Source: Lachnoanaerobaculum orale (GTDB lineage Bacteria > Bacillota > Clostridia > Lachnospirales > Lachnospiraceae). Taken from it: DNA of 41,908 nucleotides. The notes under the pieces were generated by a model. That model saw nothing but the letters and a program-made list of their open reading frames with translations, was not told where the DNA came from and did no database searches. Below are positions 3,918 to 38,363 of the stretch, one piece after another. The position numbers were made by a program, and so were the translations under genes. Positions within the stretch are counted from its first letter, which is position 1. Every line of letters starts with the position of its first letter. The stretch is taken from the NCBI RefSeq assembly GCF_003862485.1, contig NZ_RRCM01000004.1, forward strand, positions 1-41,908, read 5' to 3'.

Positions 3918-4526
3918 ATGCATATGAAAAAGATTATTTTTGCAACCGGAAATCAGCATAAACTTGAAGAAATCAGAGCTATTTTACCCGGCTTTGATAT
4001 AATCTCCGCCAAAGAAGCCGGAGTATCACTCGATATTGAAGAGACCGGAACGACATTTAAGGAAAACGCTTATATAAAGGCAAAAGCCATTTGGGACATT
4101 ACAGGCGGTATAGTAATGTCCGACGACTCCGGACTTGAAGTGGATTATATCGGCGGTGAACCCGGAGTATACTCGTCCAGATATATGGGTGAGGACACCT
4201 CATACACTATAAAAAATCAAAATATAATAGACAGATTAAAAAATGCCTCGGGAAATGAAAGAAGTGCAAGGTTTAAAGCCTGTATTTGTGCTATACTTGA
4301 AGACGGTACCACATTATTTTGCGAAGGCAGTATGGAAGGTCTGATTGCCACACAAACTTCCGGATCTAACGGCTTCGGCTATGACCCTATACTTTACCTA
4401 CCTGAATATCAAAAAACAAGTGCCGAGATAAGCCCTGAGGAAAAGAACAAGATAAGCCACAGAGGTAAGGCACTTACAGCAATGAAACAAAAGCTGGGGG
4501 AAATTTATGAAAATATTGATTGTTAG
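3918..4526 (+). CDS. rdgB: XTP/dITP diphosphatase (RdgB/HAM1 family)
   Basis: Hydrolyses non-canonical purine triphosphates (XTP, dITP/ITP) to monophosphates, keeping them out of DNA and RNA. Family motifs are clear: FATGNQHKLEEI near the N-terminus, SDDSGLEV, the GEPGVYSSRY segment, GFGYDPI and SHRGKAL. About 200 residues is the usual length. Two starts are possible, ATG 3918 (5 nt after AAAGG) and ATG 3924 (MKKIIFATGN, the usual family start); I keep 3918 on Shine-Dalgarno spacing. The 3' end overlaps the next gene by 20 nt. Confidence 0.92.
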   Translation: MHMKKIIFATGNQHKLEEIRAILPGFDIISAKEAGVSLDIEETGTTFKENAYIKAKAIWDITGGIVMSDDSGLEVDYIGGEPGVYSSRYMGEDTSYTIKNQNIIDRLKNASGNERSARFKACICAILEDGTTLFCEGSMEGLIATQTSGSNGFGYDPILYLPEYQKTSAEISPEEKNKISHRGKALTAMKQKLGEIYENIDC

Positions 4527-5078: not shown

Positions 5079-6722
5079 CTATTCAAGTGTAACAGTTGTA
5101 ACCACCTTGTTGTTTACTCTGATCTTGTAGTCCTCGCCGTCTCTCTTTGTTCCGCTCTTTAGAACGACTCCGGCATTACTTAACAACTTCACCTGATAGT
5201 TTGAATTCGGTGTTGTGATATGCCATGTAGTCTTCTTCTCAGTCTCTTCTACAGAAGATACATATCCGGGCATATTAAGCAGCTCTCCTACAGTTCCCTT
5301 AAATACAAGCTGATTGTCATTACTCTTGTCAACTACAACTACTTCATACTTGTCATACTGATCGGCCTTTATATTAAGACCTCCGATATAGAGTTTATCA
5401 TCTCTTATTCCGTTAAATCCGGCACCTCTGTTGGATCCGGCATCTCTGAAATAGAATGTTCTGTTCTCATCGTCAAGCTTAATACTCTGTTTGCCGTACT
5501 TTTGAGAACCGTCCTTACCGTCTCCGAAGTACATCATACGATACTTGCCTGACAAGAATTCACTGTAATGGATCTTACCGATAGACTCTTCTATATTCTC
5601 CTGAGTCTCATACGGAATCTTTTTACTGCTCTTTCCGAGGTTATCTACAAACTCTGTAGTAGAATACTTACCGCTTGGCAGCTGCTTCATCTCAAGTAAT
5701 ACAAGACCGGACATCATTCCGCCCTTATCATCAAAAGCATACTTCTTTCCGTTGATTGTCTTTATCTCATTTGCAACCAAATGACCTTTGCCGTCTGCAT
5801 AGTACCATGCACTGCCGTCCTCTTCCCATTTACCCTTGTTAAGGAAATATCCCGGAATAACCTTGAACCATCCCCTGGTAGACTTTGCACCGTCTTCAGG
5901 TGTAGAGAAGTACATAAAACTCTCACTGTACTCCGCTCTCTGTGATTTCGGAACTGCTGTAGAAGGAGTAGCCTCCGTATACCAGCTTGCAATCATTCTA
6001 CCGTCTTCGTCAAATCCATACTTCTTTCCGTTGATTGTTTTTCCGAGACTCTTTACCTCTTTCTTACCTGAAGCATTGAAATAGAACCATCTTACCTGAT
6101 CGGTATCCCAGTAATCAATATTCGGTTGTTCTTCCATGGTTCTTGCATTGTCATCATGAACCATAATCTCTCTCCAACCTGTGGTCATTGCACCGTCATT
6201 TGCATCACCGAAGTAATACTTTGCATTCCTCCATGCATCCTGGTCTGTAAGTCTCTCGCCCTGTGATACCCATCCGAAAAGCATCTTTCCGTCAACATCA
6301 AAAGCATACTTCTTTCCGTTGATGGTCTTTAGAGAAACATCACTTGAAGATGATTCATTTCTCTTATATGCTTTTCCGTTGTCACCGAAATAGTACCACC
6401 ACTGATCAGGCTCATCCTTGTCGTAATCGTTTGTATTCGGCACCGCAACCCACTGATTTCTTACCATCACGCCGTTTGCATCCACATAGTATGTAGCGTT
6501 CCCGTCATCGATAAGAGAATCTTTTGCCATATCTCCCAAGTCATCCAAATAATACCAATAGTCCCCTGATTTTTGCCACTTCTGTGATACTTTCTCCTCG
6601 TTTTTGTCATAGTATACCCAAGTACCGTTCTCCTGTTGCCAACCTGTTGCGGCAAAAGATGTCATCGCACCTGCAACACTCATAACACCTACGAGTAATG
6701 CCAGCTTTGTCTGCTTCTTCAT
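5079..6722 (-). CDS. Secreted cell-wall-binding-repeat protein (547 aa)
   Basis: Sec-exported surface protein. Signal peptide about 1-24, with hydrophobic core LALLVGVMSVAGAM and cleavage after SFA. Most of the chain is CW_binding_1-like repeats (W...WYY..G, with recurring KTINGKKYAF/GFDEDGRM blocks), which in choline- or glucan-binding proteins attach the protein to wall teichoic acid or polysaccharide. The last ~110 residues (DKYEVVVVDKS... onward) are a beta-rich, repeat-free domain of unknown role. GGGAG lies 5 nt before the ATG, and a weak promoter (TTGTGT-17-TATATC) is visible upstream. It is convergent with the holA operon and stands alone. No catalytic domain was recognised, so the role is probably adhesion or wall structure. 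Confidence 0.8.
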   Translation of the reverse strand: MKKQTKLALLVGVMSVAGAMTSFAATGWQQENGTWVYYDKNEEKVSQKWQKSGDYWYYLDDLGDMAKDSLIDDGNATYYVDANGVMVRNQWVAVPNTNDYDKDEPDQWWYYFGDNGKAYKRNESSSSDVSLKTINGKKYAFDVDGKMLFGWVSQGERLTDQDAWRNAKYYFGDANDGAMTTGWREIMVHDDNARTMEEQPNIDYWDTDQVRWFYFNASGKKEVKSLGKTINGKKYGFDEDGRMIASWYTEATPSTAVPKSQRAEYSESFMYFSTPEDGAKSTRGWFKVIPGYFLNKGKWEEDGSAWYYADGKGHLVANEIKTINGKKYAFDDKGGMMSGLVLLEMKQLPSGKYSTTEFVDNLGKSSKKIPYETQENIEESIGKIHYSEFLSGKYRMMYFGDGKDGSQKYGKQSIKLDDENRTFYFRDAGSNRGAGFNGIRDDKLYIGGLNIKADQYDKYEVVVVDKSNDNQLVFKGTVGELLNMPGYVSSVEETEKKTTWHITTPNSNYQVKLLSNAGVVLKSGTKRDGEDYKIRVNNKVVTTVTLE

Positions 6723-33649: not shown

Positions 33650-34567
33650 TTATTTTACCCATCTTCCTGAAGCGTCAAGTCTGTAGCCGTCTGCAGTAGT
33701 TGTATTGCTTAACATTGCTCCTGACGGACTCATGTAGTACCAATCATTTCCTGATTGTACCCAACCTGTAGCCATAGCACCTGACGGATTCATGTAATAC
33801 CAGTCGTTTCCTGACTGTACCCAGCCTGTAACCATTGCTCCGCTTGCATTAAAGAAGTACCATACTCCGTTTATCTGTCTCCAGCTCGTAGCAATATATC
33901 CCTCTCCGTCAAAGAAATACCATATGCCGTCAACCTGCTTCCATGTATTGGTTACATAACTTCCGTTAGACTCTTTATACTTCCATCCTCTATCGGTATT
34001 CTCCCAACCCTGAGATGATGTATTTGCAGATGAACCCATATCTACATAAAAGTAACCTACTCTATTTGCATTTTTTTCATTGAAGTAGCTTCCCTCAAAA
34101 TCATATGGGAGTGCAGCATTCCTACCTGTATTCTTAGAAAAAGATATTATAACATCCTGTCCGGTATATGCTTTAAATCTGCTTCTTAGTAATATCGGGT
34201 CACCAACACTATAATTACTTATTGTAAGCGGTGTATACTCCGTTGACCTTTCCAAATTCAATGTAGGAGCTGAAAAAGCCGAATCTTTGTAGTTAAACAT
34301 AGCAACATTGTTTTGCTTATTGATTGCTCCCGAAGGATCATAAAAATATGTGTCCACATATTTCGAATCACCTTCATTTATACTTAGAACAGCATCTTTT
34401 TTGATAACAGGCATAGTTATCTCTGTTCCAAGCGGTGAAACCCAAGTGTAAGTCCTTCCCGTATCTCCGCTTTTTATTGTGACATCAGGATTGCTTGATG
34501 TAAAAGCAAATGCATTAAAGCACATAAGAGCAGAAAAAGCTGCTGTCAATAAAAATAGTTTCTTCAT
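33650..34567 (-). CDS. Secreted cell-wall-binding-repeat protein (305 aa)
   Basis: Signal peptide about 1-21 (LFLLTAAFSALMCFNAFA). A unique beta-rich N-terminal domain (about 22-180) follows, then five CW_binding repeats; the last two (TGWVQSGNDWYYMNPSGAMA and a copy) are near-identical, pointing to recent repeat expansion. It ends in a cap NTTTADGYRLDASGRWV shared with the protein at 23791. GAAAGGAG lies 7 nt before the ATG. Its long leader (at least 80 nt) contains a hairpin at 34610-34650. Likely a non-covalently bound surface protein; the N-terminal domain is not recognised. Confidence 0.8.
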   Translation of the reverse strand: MKKLFLLTAAFSALMCFNAFAFTSSNPDVTIKSGDTGRTYTWVSPLGTEITMPVIKKDAVLSINEGDSKYVDTYFYDPSGAINKQNNVAMFNYKDSAFSAPTLNLERSTEYTPLTISNYSVGDPILLRSRFKAYTGQDVIISFSKNTGRNAALPYDFEGSYFNEKNANRVGYFYVDMGSSANTSSQGWENTDRGWKYKESNGSYVTNTWKQVDGIWYFFDGEGYIATSWRQINGVWYFFNASGAMVTGWVQSGNDWYYMNPSGAMATGWVQSGNDWYYMSPSGAMLSNTTTADGYRLDASGRWVK

Positions 34568-35124: not shown

Positions 35125-35343
35125 CTAAAATATTTTAACTCTCTTACCGGTTATTTCATCTATTTTGTAGAAATAATCCTTTACTATACCTTTCTCATAT
35201 CCACTGATATCTGCTGTTGGATACAGCTCATTCAGGTGCTTTCTTACTTCCATATCACCTGCGTCAAGCCCTTTAAATTCATGCCTTCTTTTGTCCCACT
35301 CTTCATATGTGGTTATTTTCATAAATTCTTCTTTCAAACTCAT
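35125..35343 (-). CDS. Small hypothetical protein, 72 aa (paralogue of 36159)
   Basis: Reads MSLKEEFMKITTYEEWDKRR then HEFKGLDAGDMEVRKHLNELYP and a GYEKGI motif. It is clearly related to the 74-residue protein at 36159 (MSL-x-x-EFMK-x-x-TYEEW-x-x-RR/RG-x-EFK, HL-x-x-LYP, GYEKGI). Small, charged and soluble, with no signal peptide. GAGGT lies 7 nt before the ATG. Function unknown; tandem arrays of such proteins are often immunity or antitoxin-like, but no toxin is visible here. Confidence 0.65.
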   Translation of the reverse strand: MSLKEEFMKITTYEEWDKRRHEFKGLDAGDMEVRKHLNELYPTADISGYEKGIVKDYFYKIDEITGKRVKIF

Positions 35344-35390: not shown

Positions 35391-35621
35391 TTATAGTAAT
35401 TCTTTCTCTAAATCAAAGTCCAACCCAATTTCTTCTAAACTTATTTCTCTGACACTAAGTTCCGTCCTTAAAATATCTAATACTTCGTAGTATGCCAATG
35501 CTCTTCCATCCCTAAAAACGTCTTCTCTATTGTCCTTTGATTCTTCGACTGCTTCTCTCGCTCTTTCTACTATTCTTCCCACAATATAGGCTATTCCTTC
35601 AATGCTGACCTTATCTGCCAT
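35391..35621 (-). CDS. Small hypothetical protein, 76 aa
   Basis: Mostly helical, acidic, reading MADKVSIEGIAYIVGRIVER and then REAVEESKDNREDVFRDGRA. I start at ATG 35621, 5 nt after GAGG; an in-frame GTG at 35627 overlaps that Shine-Dalgarno. No family recognised. It lies 25 nt downstream of the 84-residue gene, in the same orientation. Confidence 0.6.
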   Translation of the reverse strand: MADKVSIEGIAYIVGRIVERAREAVEESKDNREDVFRDGRALAYYEVLDILRTELSVREISLEEIGLDFDLEKELL

Positions 35622-35646
35622 ATTCACCTCTTTTATTCAAATATCT

Positions 35647-35901
35647 TTAACAGCTTCTTAATAGTGTACGTACATTCTGCATAGAGAAAAGTTCCTCTTC
35701 AGTTCTTACAATAGTAAAAGGATTTCCATCTATTTCGCAATCATATAAATCATCCAATGGTGTTTCGTGCTTTTTACCGATACTGATATTTTCCTTTTTT
35801 AAAATGCTTTGTAATTTTATCAGCTCTTCTTCCACCGAAATTCTCTCGTAATTCTGAAAATAAATCCTGTTTTTATCGTTTTTAAGTAAAAATGCTTTCA
35901 T
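35647..35901 (-). CDS. Small hypothetical protein, 84 aa
   Basis: Alpha/beta composition: MKAFLLKNDKNRIYFQNYER, a helix with SVEEELIKLQSILKKENI, and a strand-rich end (GNPFTIVRTEEELF). GGAGG is present but 13 nt upstream of the ATG, so translation may be weak. No family recognised; a small cytoplasmic immunity-like fold is possible but unproven. Confidence 0.55.
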   Translation of the reverse strand: MKAFLLKNDKNRIYFQNYERISVEEELIKLQSILKKENISIGKKHETPLDDLYDCEIDGNPFTIVRTEEELFSMQNVRTLLRSC

Positions 35902-35926
35902 TATGATATACCACCCTCCGTAAGAA

Positions 35927-36118
35927 TTACTTTACCACCATATTGTCATCCCACTCGACGATTTCAAACATATCAGGAGGATACAAATAATCGTCACCTG
36001 AATCATCTATAATTCTATACCAACCACGTTCTATAGATAGAACATCATAAATCTTATTATTTGTTAATACCAAATAATCTGTTTTACCAATCCATTTAAC
36101 CTTCATTTCTTTATTCAA
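35927..36118 (-). CDS. Small SH3-like hypothetical protein, 63 aa
   Basis: Reads MKVKWIGKTDYLVLTNNKIY..VLSIERGWYRIIDDSGDDYLYPP..FEIVE, a pattern seen in many firmicute hypothetical proteins of this length (beta-barrel, all strands). I keep the TTG start at 36118 because AAAGG lies 5 nt before it; the internal ATG (MKVKW) is the family's usual start and remains possible. Function unknown. Confidence 0.6.
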   Translation of the reverse strand: MNKEMKVKWIGKTDYLVLTNNKIYDVLSIERGWYRIIDDSGDDYLYPPDMFEIVEWDDNMVVK

Positions 36119-36158: not shown

Positions 36159-36383
36159 CTACCTCCATCTCATTTTTTTCGGATATTCTCCATCTTTTGG
36201 TTTAGGGTATAGCTCTGTAAATATTCCTTTTTCGTATCCAATACTATGTGGTAGCTTTGGATATAAACTATCTAAATGATCTATAATCTCTCTGTCTCTA
36301 AAATTTAAACTTTTAAATTCCCCTCTCCTTGCATTCCACTCTTCATAGGTTTTCAACTTCATAAACTCATCTCTTAAACTCAA
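36159..36383 (-). CDS. Small hypothetical protein, 74 aa (paralogue of 35125)
   Basis: Starts MSLRDEFMKLKTYEEWNARR, matching the paralogue at 35125 over most of its length. The TTG start at 36383 is supported by AAGGAG 7 nt upstream and by alignment with the paralogue's ATG. About 250 nt downstream of the orphan small RNA terminator on the same strand, so it would be the first gene read if that terminator were overridden. Confidence 0.62.
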   Translation of the reverse strand: MSLRDEFMKLKTYEEWNARRGEFKSLNFRDREIIDHLDSLYPKLPHSIGYEKGIFTELYPKPKDGEYPKKMRWR

Positions 36384-36633: not shown

Positions 36634-36661
36634 CAAAAAAGACACCTATATCAAGTGTCTC
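36634..36661 (-). terminator. Intrinsic terminator of the orphan small RNA
   Basis: On the minus strand AGACAC-TTGATATAG-GTGTCT followed by TTTTTTGTT. Confidence 0.88.
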
Positions 36662-36748
36662 TAAACTTCCATTTTTATAGGAAAGTAAGTCGGAGTTGCA
36701 CCGGCCTTTTCCCCGTAGGGCTGTATACCTCCTATACGATTACCTTCC
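36634..36748 (-). ncRNA. Orphan aptamer-like small RNA (possible riboswitch with terminator)
   Basis: About 115 nt, bounded by a promoter (36755-36783) and an intrinsic terminator. The first ~69 nt (36680-36748) fold into a junction closed by GGAAgGTAAtCG / CGacTTACtTTCC, with three inner hairpins: GTATA-GGAGG-TATAC, CCC-TAC-GGG and CGG-TGCAACT-CCG. An aptamer-like domain followed at once by a terminator is the riboswitch layout. The segment GGGGAA..CCGGTGCAACTCCG recalls the cobalamin-riboswitch core, but the rest of that fold is missing. No known class assigned. The GGAGG held in a loop could also mimic a Shine-Dalgarno or titrate a regulator. Confidence 0.6.
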
Positions 36749-36754
36749 GATTGT

Positions 36755-36783
36755 ATTGTCACATATCTTCGGGAATTTGTCAA
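36755..36783 (-). promoter_or_regulatory. Promoter of the orphan small RNA
   Basis: On the minus strand TTGACA (36778-36783), 17-bp spacer, GACAAT (36755-36760) preceded by TGT, an extended -10. The predicted start, about 36748, is exactly the first base of the closing stem. Confidence 0.75.
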
Positions 36784-37552: not shown

Positions 37553-37560
37553 CACACTGA

Positions 37561-37633
37561 TGAGACACCCGGGACTCGAACCCGGGACAACTTGATTAAA
37601 AGTCAAGTGCTCTACCACCTGAGCTAGTATCCC
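37561..37633 (-). tRNA. tRNA-Lys (TTT)
   Basis: 73 nt, cloverleaf complete. The anticodon loop CTTTTAA lies in the stem ACTTGA/TCAAGT, with GGTTCGAGTCC in the T arm. Last tRNA of the operon. Confidence 0.95.
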
Positions 37634-37646
37634 ATAAAAGAATAAA

Positions 37647-37719
<73 letters not shown>

Positions 37720-37723
37720 ATAA

Positions 37724-37797
37724 TTGCGGGGACAGGATTTGAACCTGCGACCTCCGGGTTATGAGCCCGACGAGCTTCCAGACTGCTCTACCCCGCG
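37724..37797 (-). tRNA. Initiator tRNA-fMet (CAT)
   Basis: The 5' CGCGGGG pairs with CCCCGC leaving C1 opposite A72, the initiator hallmark. The anticodon stem has GGG/CCC around CTCATAA. 74 nt without CCA. Confidence 0.95.
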
Positions 37798-37846
37798 ACA
37801 ACAATATTCAGAATAAAACTCACTCTTAAAAAGAGTGACTGAATAA

Positions 37847-37928
37847 TGGGGGAAGGTGGATTCGAACCACCGAAAGCAGTGCTAGCAGATTTACAGTCTG
37901 TCCCCTTTGGCCTCTCGGGAATTCCCCC
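37847..37928 (-). tRNA. tRNA-Tyr (GTA)
   Basis: 82 nt with a long variable arm (class II). Acceptor GGGGGAA/TTCCCCC, anticodon loop CTGTAAA, discriminator A. Confidence 0.95.
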
Positions 37929-37969
37929 ATAACTTTATTAAGTTCTTTACCTTTACTCCTAAGAGTAAA

Positions 37970-38042
37970 AGCCGATAATCGGACTCGAACCGATAACCTG
38001 CTGATTACAAATCAGCTGCTCTGCCAATTGAGCCATATCGGC
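37970..38042 (-). tRNA. tRNA-Thr (TGT)
   Basis: Acceptor GCCGATA/TATCGGC, anticodon loop TTTGTAA, T arm GGTTCGAGTCC. Confidence 0.95.
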
Positions 38043-38104
38043 ATGTGCAATATATTATCATAAAAGAAATATATTGTCAATACCATCTTTCAAAGAAAGA
38101 TAAA

Positions 38105-38177
38105 TGGGACCTACAGGGCTCGAACCTGTGACCCTCTGCTTGTAAGGCAGATGCTCTCCCAGCTGAGCTAAGATCCC
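38105..38177 (-). tRNA. tRNA-Val (TAC)
   Basis: Acceptor GGGATCT/AGGTCCC, anticodon loop CTTACAA in CTGC/GCAG, T arm GGTTCGAGCCC, discriminator A. Confidence 0.95.
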
Positions 38178-38213
38178 ATATTTAAAACTTAAAGGCTGGA
38201 ATTCTTTAAGTAA

Positions 38214-38287
38214 CGACCCGAATCGGACTCGAACCGACGACCTCCGCCGTGACAGGGCGGCGCTCTAACCAACTGAGCCATCGGGCC
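38214..38287 (-). tRNA. tRNA-Asp (GTC)
   Basis: Acceptor GGCCCGA/TCGGGTC, discriminator G (usual for Asp), anticodon loop CTGTCAC in CGCC/GGCG. First tRNA after the 23S gene. Confidence 0.95.
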
Positions 38288-38363
38288 ATATTTAAATTAA
38301 GAAGAAAATGTATCTTCAAAACTGCCTACCAAGTTCCGAGCTATTATAAATTTTTCCTATCTT

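What the first reader, a model, noticed from the sequence alone, without database searches (positions are those of the whole stretch)
36634..36748. Orphan riboswitch-like small RNA inside a small-gene array
Near-ideal promoter whose predicted start is the first base of a three-hairpin junction, followed about 20 nt later by a canonical terminator: the architecture of a riboswitch expression platform or a stand-alone sRNA. One hairpin displays GGAGG in its loop, closed by a perfect GTATA/TATAC stem. The GGGGAA..GGTGCAACTCC segment resembles the cobalamin core, yet the P1/P2/P5 parts are absent. The gene that readthrough would reach is a 74-aa protein of unknown function 250 nt away.
Basis: partly seen in the sequence, partly recalled or inferred. 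Interest (0 to 1): 0.78.

Follow-up and report, generated by a model that had tools for sequence, protein, structure and literature searches.

The report
Small RNA shaped like a tRNA
The spot holds a real small-RNA gene that appears to fold like a transfer RNA without being one, a diverged cousin of RNAs carried by bacterial viruses and their satellites, and it is probably not a riboswitch.

Summary
In detail: on the minus strand of a Lachnoanaerobaculum-type genome there is a promoter, a 69-nt folded domain (36748-36680) and a terminator. In five genomes of the genus the domain is 97% identical while DNA on both sides is 43-60% identical, so it is an RNA gene. The "cobalamin core" is a tRNA T-loop. 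The RNA aligns gap-free with a family whose named member is Rfam SpF41, an unexplained pneumococcal sRNA. I find that this family has a tRNA-like fold: acceptor, D and T arms and a short hairpin in the anticodon place, with covariation in stems and at both elbow contacts (18-55, 19-56). In phages it follows phrog_9479, a gene weakly similar to the predicted RNase toxin Ntox24 (28 of 30 records, three of these by eye), and precedes terminase genes; in Streptococcus satellites it precedes cargo genes. In some satellites the flanks are identical while the inner RNA is 70% identical, as if alleles were swapped. The window RNA stays below SpF41's Rfam cut-off, so I call it a diverged relative. Best guess: a free-standing tRNA mimic acting as a decoy; its target is unknown and an antidote role is untested.

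The parts
36755..36783 (-). sigma-70-type promoter, TTGACA - 17 - GACAAT, TG before the -10
   Evidence: 10 of 12; 32 of 38 family copies scored (some nearly identical to each other) have a promoter-like site of at least 9 of 12 ending within 25 nt upstream, against 49 of 760 letter-shuffled upstreams; below 9: L057, L055, L003, L009 and the second tandem copies in L052 and L246
36680..36748 (-). 69-nt tRNA-like domain (predicted RNA 5' end about 36748)
   Evidence: gap-free full-length match (36748-36681) to family models that contain no sequence of this genus
36740..36748 (-). acceptor-like stem P1, 5' strand GGAAGGUAA
   Evidence: sequence; pairs with 36680-36688 (9 bp, one G.U)
36680..36688 (-). 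acceptor-like stem P1, 3' strand UUACUUUCC (no CCA end)
   Evidence: sequence; register shifted by one base against the family model
36723..36737 (-). D-like arm GUA-UAGGAGGUA-UAC; A36730 and G36729 are positions 18/19
   Evidence: alignment A7
36711..36720 (-). short hairpin CCC-UACG-GGG in the place of the anticodon arm; no anticodon loop
   Evidence: sequence
36689..36705 (-). T-like arm, 7-nt loop UGCAACU (36694-36700), stem with one C.A mismatch; G36699 and C36698 are positions 55/56
36638..36662 (-). intrinsic terminator, 11 bp, followed by T run
   Evidence: conserved in 5 genomes
36159..36383 (-). 74-aa ORF downstream; 52% identical over 61 aa to the 72-aa ORF 35125-35343; present whole or in part in 3 of the 5 genomes
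35391..36118 (-). small ORFs p63 (phrog_34144), p84, p78, found downstream of the RNA in all five genomes (p63 and p84 in two frames in G150)
37559..38288 (-). seven tRNA genes upstream, behind an rRNA operon; same tRNA order upstream of the RNA in 3 of the 5 genomes, none within the 1.5 kb read in the other two

Best explanation
A gene for a free-standing small RNA of about 110 nt whose 69-nt body folds into an L-shaped tRNA mimic: acceptor-like stem, D-like arm, stub hairpin where the anticodon arm would be, T-like arm, D-loop/T-loop elbow, no CCA and no anticodon. It is a diverged, apparently domesticated relative of the SpF41-like RNAs of phages of Firmicutes (and of Atopobium) and of Streptococcus satellite phages. 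Shown here: promoter, terminator, bounded conservation, stem and elbow covariation in the family, phage and satellite contexts, different inner RNAs between the same flanks. Inferred: transcription of the window copy, its three-dimensional shape, and function. Most likely function: a decoy that occupies a tRNA-binding or tRNA-cutting protein of a rival element, a phage or a defence system (the Ntox24-like protein next to the phage copies is one candidate).
For: Model R2, built from 30 relatives without any sequence of this genus, finds the window copy at 40.0 bits, E 5.6e-11, in the whole genome; the next best place there is 20.2 bits. Of 4227 Rfam families the best match, full length, is SpF41, 26.8 bits. 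Of 20 relatives' loci scanned, 14 hold 16 places that reach SpF41's cut-off, and one of them (L054) also passes the tRNA family (32.6, cut-off 29). ARAGORN calls no tRNA at the window site. Covariation: MAFFT alignment A4 of 9 relatives, 10 of 19 pairs with changes on both sides, no shuffle of 500 as high on four of five measures (160 of 500 on the fifth, further pair types); A7, 39 distinct rows, 16 of 19 pairs, 0 of 500 on all five. Elbow: pair 19-56 standard (G-C, U-G, U-A, G-U) in 37 of 39 rows; 23 of 25 distinct loop combinations against 14.9 expected, reached in 5 of 20000 shuffles; 18-55 and 19-56 have the two highest mutual informations of 70 D-loop by T-loop column pairs. Bounded conservation. 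phrog_9479 directly upstream in phages (5 of 5 proteins scanned; records), Ntox24-like at best E 4.7e-4. L071 and L078 against L134: upstream 50 of 50 identical, downstream 29 of 30, inner RNA 38 of 54. Tandem copies in L052, L079, L081, L246.
Against: The window copy is under SpF41's Rfam cut-off (26.8 against 52), its middle hairpin differs, three model pairs are non-standard in it, and its acceptor stem pairs in a register one base off the model. Score alone does not separate it from the best-fitting tRNA-like places in viral contigs chosen by a tRNA-like pattern, which reach 46 bits with R2 and look like ordinary tRNAs by eye (not run through ARAGORN). A7 was fitted to the model, and the shuffles do not correct for relatedness. 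6 of the 20 relatives' loci have no SpF41 match at the cut-off (L121, L246, L257, L259, L261, L262). No transcript data for this genus. No binding partner shown. The window genome has no phrog_9479 at E 1e-5 and no Ntox24 hit (whose control rang nowhere, so not informative). Ntox24 similarity is below Pfam's cut-off in every protein; 3 of 15 members match at E 0.1 or better, and one member matches an unrelated family, APH-like_N, at E 3.7e-4, as good as the best Ntox24 value. The predicted structure of phrog_9479 (pLDDT 74.9) matches no solved structure (best E 0.5). phrog_9479 also occurs without the RNA (L255, L263), and the RNA without it.
Confidence: 0.5

Rival explanations
1. Leader of a regulated operon: a short terminated leader RNA made from a strong promoter, read through when a regulator (antiterminator) or ligand acts, like the lambda pR' leader in front of the late genes (recalled), with the tRNA-like fold as the control element.
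For: In phages the RNA and its terminator lie between a promoter inside the 3' end of phrog_9479 and the terminase genes; in the Clostridia MAG L121 it lies in front of a cysK-like gene with no terminator found.
Against: Downstream genes differ widely; in the five satellites read no terminase gene is annotated behind it; tandem copies and different inner RNAs between the same flanks are not expected of a leader; in the genus the next gene differs between genomes.
Confidence: 0.15
2. A base-pairing regulatory sRNA (mRNA targets in trans), the tRNA-like fold serving stability.
For: For the relative SpF41 in S. pneumoniae, deletion raised expression of SP1688-1690 and lowered fitness in mice (PMC3395615, passages read).
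Against: No exposed conserved single-stranded seed is evident: the conserved loops are the elbow loops and a 4-nt hairpin loop; the middle hairpin differs between window lineage and phages. No target search was run.
Confidence: 0.12
3. A decayed tRNA or dead phage remnant without function, left beside the tRNA operon.
For: Next to seven tRNA genes in 3 of 5 genomes; small ORFs of families known from phages near it (phrog_1865, phrog_34144); no promoter of 9 of 12 within 25 nt in two genomes.
Against: 97% identity over the RNA core and 95% over the terminator against 43-60% around them in five genomes; its middle hairpin has no anticodon loop.
Confidence: 0.08
4. A riboswitch (cobalamin-like or new).
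For: Promoter, junction, terminator in riboswitch order.
Against: No Rfam riboswitch hit at gathering or at E 10; the core motif is a T-loop that covaries with a D-loop; no conserved regulated gene (and the contexts).
Confidence: 0.05

Closest known systems
SpF41 sRNA (Rfam RF02435; srn277/F41 of S. pneumoniae TIGR4)
   Same: Same order of parts and lengths, gap-free alignment of the core to the family model, promoter and terminator, one free-standing RNA of about 100-110 nt.
   Different: 26.8 bits against a cut-off of 52; D-loop/T-loop type AG/GC and middle hairpin CCC-UACG-GGG instead of the CCUU-GAUR-GAGG of most phage copies; chromosomal in one genus.
tRNA (RF00005)
   Same: Acceptor, D and T arms, 7-nt T-loop, 19-56 and 18-55 elbow contacts (by covariation).
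   Different: No anticodon arm, no CCA, not called by ARAGORN; terminator 18 nt after the acceptor stem.
Bacterial Y RNA (YrlA), a known tRNA mimic (recalled)
   Same: Small RNA with a tRNA-like module.
   Different: No Rfam hit to a Y RNA and no Ro60/TROVE protein found in the genome (1 of 14 control genomes rang).
Type III toxin-antitoxin RNAs (recalled)
   Same: An RNA beside a possible RNase gene, carried by mobile elements.
   Different: Toxin only weakly Ntox24-like; neutralisation untested; window copy has no such gene found beside it.

Membership tests
SpF41_sRNA (RF02435) | bit score at or above the curated cut-off of 52 | tested here: not met
   26.8 bits, E 0.065 in 741 bases, full model 1-105
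SpF41_sRNA (RF02435) | homologous by a model widened with relatives, window lineage left out | tested here: met
   R2: 40.0 bits, E 5.6e-11 in the whole genome; next best 20.2 bits. But some tRNA-like places in viral contigs reach 46 bits
SpF41_sRNA (RF02435) | same arm order and lengths, own promoter and terminator | tested here: met
tRNA | anticodon arm with 7-nt loop, CCA-ready 3' end, call by a tRNA finder | tested here: not met
   RF00005 not listed at E 10 for this stretch
tRNA-like fold | D-loop/T-loop tertiary contacts 18-55 and 19-56 | tested here: met
   family covariation; window has A18/G55 and G19/C56. Not seen in a 3D structure
Cobalamin riboswitch | Rfam match | tested here: not met
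Bacterial Y RNA | Rfam match and a Ro60 (TROVE) protein in the genome | tested here: not met
RNA antitoxin (type III-like) | neutralises an adjacent toxin | not testable with these tools
   needs a toxicity assay in a laboratory strain
RNA antitoxin (type III-like) | toxin gene adjacent | tested here: inconclusive
   phage relatives: phrog_9479 directly upstream, weakly Ntox24-like; window genome: no phrog_9479, Ntox24 search uninformative

The most novel reading that the evidence does not exclude
A family of phage-borne tRNA mimics that serve as RNA antidotes or decoys with exchangeable specificity: each element carries a promoter-terminator cassette into which different tRNA-like bodies (different elbow and arm types) are swapped, satellites and some chromosomes keep antidote-only copies against the toxin of their phages or rivals, and the Lachnoanaerobaculum copy is a chromosomal, domesticated antidote.
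Probability: 0.2. Interest if true: 0.85.

Novelty: new variant of a known kind. Interest (0 to 1): 0.6.

Why it matters
SpF41 has been listed since 2012 as a Northern-verified sRNA whose deletion attenuates S. pneumoniae in mice (PMC3395615, passages); in what I read, no fold class or mechanism is given. Seeing the family as tRNA mimics spread among phages, satellites and a few chromosomes turns it into a testable question: which tRNA-binding protein does it catch? A small RNA with swappable bodies beside a possible RNase gene would be a new kind of weapon or shield between mobile elements. For the window it removes a false riboswitch lead.

Tried and rejected
Cobalamin or other riboswitch: no Rfam hit. 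Y RNA: no TROVE protein. Nucleotide search in phages with the window copy: no match; it worked only with the relative L010; in plasmids that query matched one record, at its terminator end only. The SpF41 model at order level: 33 of 196 genomes with hits, one over the cut-off; of the 30 loci fetched (L010-L039) 26 are tRNAs by ARAGORN, L010 is the relative, and L029-L031 were not called (they look like tmRNA ends by eye). Model R1 at family level: 127 of 200 genomes 'hit'; of the 30 loci fetched 25 have a tRNA there by ARAGORN, the others being L080 (the relative), L081, the two of this genus, and L109, whose match lay outside the stretch I scanned. So R1 at weak E-values is useless for counting. 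At E 1e-10: 2 of 391 genomes of the class, 1 of 398 of the phylum, the latter (L248) by eye an ordinary tRNA; the window genome itself does not pass that threshold. The pattern mostly caught tRNA-like places; it fetched 120 stretches, of which I searched the 78 new ones listed and later L206, L225 and L234. The pattern found nothing. A packaging-site (cos/pac DNA) reading was rejected because the DNA around the RNA is not shared between phages and satellites (by eye) while stems covary. Structure and sequence search for phrog_9479 in the PDB gave nothing. Papers: searches showed, in listings and passages, no paper that calls this family tRNA-like or links it to terminase or satellites; the library lacks most subscription papers. 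Read as passages only: PMC3395615, PMC12323649, PMC6064168, PMC9569102, PMC5928044 (an unrelated strain name), PMC3482391; all others seen as search listings.

Full report
What is there. The window lies in a genome whose nearest named relatives are Lachnoanaerobaculum species (record titles; the window genome itself is unnamed). On the minus strand, downstream of an rRNA operon and seven tRNA genes, a promoter TTGACA-17-GACAAT with TG before the -10 (36783-36755) is followed at 36748 by a 69-nt domain, a linker of about 18 nt and an 11-bp terminator (36662-36638). Folding energy alone is weak (z -1.58). Comparison is strong: the RNA is in 5 of 6 genomes of the genus, and in those five the core has a mean pairwise identity of 0.974 (lowest 0.957), linker 0.911, terminator 0.946, but promoter region 0.449, further upstream 0.430, downstream 0.463 and 0.597, gaps counted as differences. 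The conserved block begins at the acceptor-like stem and ends with the terminator.

What it is related to. Rfam at gathering level gives nothing at the site. At E 10 the best of 4227 families is SpF41_sRNA, full length, 26.8 bits, cut-off 52, E 0.065. Blastn with that relative finds 35 phage records, 27 of them named Streptococcus phages or satellite phages; five (Acinetobacter 2, Salmonella 2, bajarodmic 1) match only the terminator end, so 30 hold the core. Pattern scans of viral and genome collections gave more. Of 20 loci scanned with Rfam, 14 hold 16 places at or above SpF41's cut-off, including a contig that matches Atopobium deltae (L041, L111), a GC-rich metagenomic phage contig (L057) and a Veillonellaceae chromosome (L112); L121, L246, L257, L259, L261 and L262 have none; one relative (L054) also passes the tRNA family.

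Fold. I aligned nine relatives by MAFFT (A4) and counted a structure that I set by hand from the sequences: 97.1% of cells paired, 10 of 19 pairs with changes on both sides, no shuffle of 500 as high on four of five measures (160 of 500 on the fifth), slid versions 37-51% paired. A model from these (R1) finds the window copy end to end without gaps, 31.5 bits, though three model pairs are non-standard in it and its own acceptor stem pairs one base off the model's register. On the enlarged alignment A7 (43 matches, 39 distinct; fitted to the model, so biased towards it) 94.3% of cells pair and 16 of 19 pairs change on both sides. The parts are those of a tRNA: acceptor-like stem, D-like arm of 3 bp with a loop of 9 or more, T-like arm of 5 bp with a 7-nt loop, and a short hairpin where the anticodon arm would be. 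An independent check is the elbow, which the model does not contain as a pair: D-loop position 19 and T-loop position 56 form a standard pair in 37 of 39 distinct rows as G-C 23, U-G 10, G-U 2, U-A 2. Collapsed to 25 distinct loop combinations it is 23 of 25 against 14.9 expected, reached in 5 of 20000 shuffles; among 70 D-loop by T-loop column pairs 18-55 and 19-56 rank first and second in mutual information. The exceptions are L055, where an insertion makes the D-loop register uncertain, and L079:7827, with an 8-nt T-loop. These shuffles do not correct for relatedness. The window has A18/G55 and G19/C56, the same type as L041, L057 and several satellites; L009 of the same genus has G19/U56.

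Is the window copy a member? A second model (R2) was built from 30 relatives with no sequence of this genus. In the own genome it gives the window RNA 40.0 bits, E 5.6e-11; the next place has 20.2 bits. Against this, places in viral contigs picked by a tRNA-like pattern, by eye ordinary tRNAs, reach up to 46 bits, so the score alone does not prove kinship; the gap-free register, the short middle hairpin, the promoter-terminator unit and the elbow type do the rest. The curated cut-off is not met, so I do not file it as an SpF41 RNA but as a diverged relative.

Contexts. Phages: the order is phrog_9479, RNA, terS, terL in A25 and, with a tRNA-Met in between, in Dorea phage DO134P1; in Javan23 the gene between the RNA and terL is annotated hypothetical, and in Roseburia phage Jekyll the next annotated gene is terL. 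The 3' end of phrog_9479, coding WYN in 14 of 15 aligned proteins, contains the promoter, mostly TTGAnn-17-TAYAAT; L057, which lacks WYN, has no such site there. Of the 30 phage records with phrog_9479 (A25 and phiNJ2 are each in twice), 24 have a short RNA directly downstream by blastn position or model, one more (L262) has a 39.3-bit copy with its own promoter, three (Javan91, Javan254, Javan174) have what I read by eye as versions with a long insert (the model gives Javan91 only 19.4 bits and the other two nothing at E 0.001), one (Javan88) was not read, one (MT837061, L263) has none. In 299 genomes of the phylum phrog_9479 was found in two: L255 lacks the RNA, L256 was not resolved. Satellites: after a gene like that of Javan160 (phrog_3511; for that one, tblastn for the others), sometimes with one more gene between, and before small genes, some annotated as transcription regulators and, behind the second copy in Javan421, RelB/RelE. 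Chromosomes: twice in L112, beside accessory genes; once before a cysK-like gene in the Clostridia MAG L121; the window genus, where p63, p84 and p78 lie downstream in all five genomes and p74 or part of it in three. Several copies in one place: L246 (two, 2 nt apart), L052 (two by model, a third with a long insert between them by eye), L079 (three by model), L081 (two by model R1, 36.7 and 32.1 bits, not tRNAs by ARAGORN).

Cassette pattern. L071 against L134 and L078 against L134 (satellites; L071 and L078 carry the same RNA, so these are not independent): upstream 50 of 50 identical, downstream 29 of 30, inner RNA 38 of 54. L112's two copies: upstream 45 of 50, downstream 38 of 41, inner 39 of 55. 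L124 and L065 against L126: upstream 43 and 42 of 50, downstream 26 of 30, inner 38 and 37 of 54. The two phage pairs and L056 against L126 show it weakly or not (upstream 0.62-0.74). These eight pairs were chosen by me, not sampled. The pattern suggests exchange of the RNA body within constant flanks.

The neighbour gene. phrog_9479 has no solved relative by sequence. Pfam's Ntox24 is the most frequent weak hit: L042 E 4.7e-4, 20.8 bits, cut-off 24; 3 of 15 members at E 0.1 or better; but one member matches APH-like_N at E 3.7e-4, so a single weak value means little. L010, L055 and L054 give Ntox24 at E 6.4e-4, 0.018 and 0.041; the A25 and Javan23 proteins do not. The 2012 survey describes Ntox24 as all-beta, a predicted metal-independent RNase, also found in toxin-antitoxin systems and MuF proteins (PMC3482391, passages). 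The predicted fold (pLDDT 74.9) is mostly beta with a C-terminal helix and matches nothing solved. So 'toxin' is a lead, not a result. The window genome holds no phrog_9479 at E 1e-5.

Mechanism. Shown: an RNA gene under selection, tRNA-like covariation in the family, life on mobile elements. Inferred: the RNA acts in trans and catches a tRNA-binding or tRNA-cutting protein. For: tRNA shape without aminoacylation or decoding parts, free-standing units, no conserved downstream gene, several and exchanged bodies, neighbourhood of a possible RNase. Against: nothing is known to bind it; SpF41's reported effects in S. pneumoniae (Northern signal, attenuated deletion, raised SP1688-1690; PMC3395615, passages) would also fit an ordinary regulatory sRNA. 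In a 2025 survey SpF41 is listed with 4 genomes where conserved candidates have 385 (PMC12323649, passages), and a study of 27 S. agalactiae genomes found it in two strains, in strain-exclusive regions (PMC6064168, passages), as a mobile gene would be.

Verdict. A real and rather interesting RNA gene, wrongly read as riboswitch-like; a new, chromosomal variant of a known but unexplained sRNA family, for which I saw the tRNA-like fold and the phage-satellite setting in no listing or passage of the ten searches of the open library.

Noticed in passing
L112:3101-3169 and 4410-4477: Veillonellaceae Marseille-P2974 chromosome: two tRNA-like RNAs about 1.2 kb apart with nearly identical promoter and terminator regions but different bodies, beside accessory genes; a Vsr-like endonuclease ORF lies nearby (name recalled from the sequence).
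   Followed up: partly
L121:3676-3743: A relative without a terminator found by the scan sits between a promoter and a cysteine-synthase-like gene in a sheep-gut Clostridia MAG; possible cis use.
   Followed up: partly
L259, L260, L261 after phrog_9479; L052 about 5895-6050: Apparent versions with similar D- and T-like arms but a long insert in the place of the anticodon arm, reminiscent of a tmRNA layout (by eye).
   Followed up: no
L246:1430-1568: Two tRNA-like RNAs 2 nt apart behind the remaining 3' part of a phrog_9479 gene in a genome of the same class.
   Followed up: partly
L041 upstream of 1080 (also L111): Only the 3' end of a phrog_9479-like gene seems to remain, the part that holds the RNA's promoter, behind an unrelated small ORF.
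   Followed up: partly
L054:3604-3675: In Dorea phage DO134P1 an annotated real tRNA-Met stands directly between the tRNA-like RNA and terS.
   Followed up: no
window 35125-35343 and 36159-36383: Two paralogous small ORFs (52% over 61 aa) in the small-gene array; p63 and p84 are split over two frames in G150.
   Followed up: no
window 33650-34567: Protein with choline-binding repeats; a similar gene (42% over 93 aa) lies on the other side of the RNA in G150.
   Followed up: no
Rfam RF02435: SpF41's model gives sub-cut-off hits to genuine tRNAs in many genomes of the order, yet the Rfam output lists no clan for it.
   Followed up: partly
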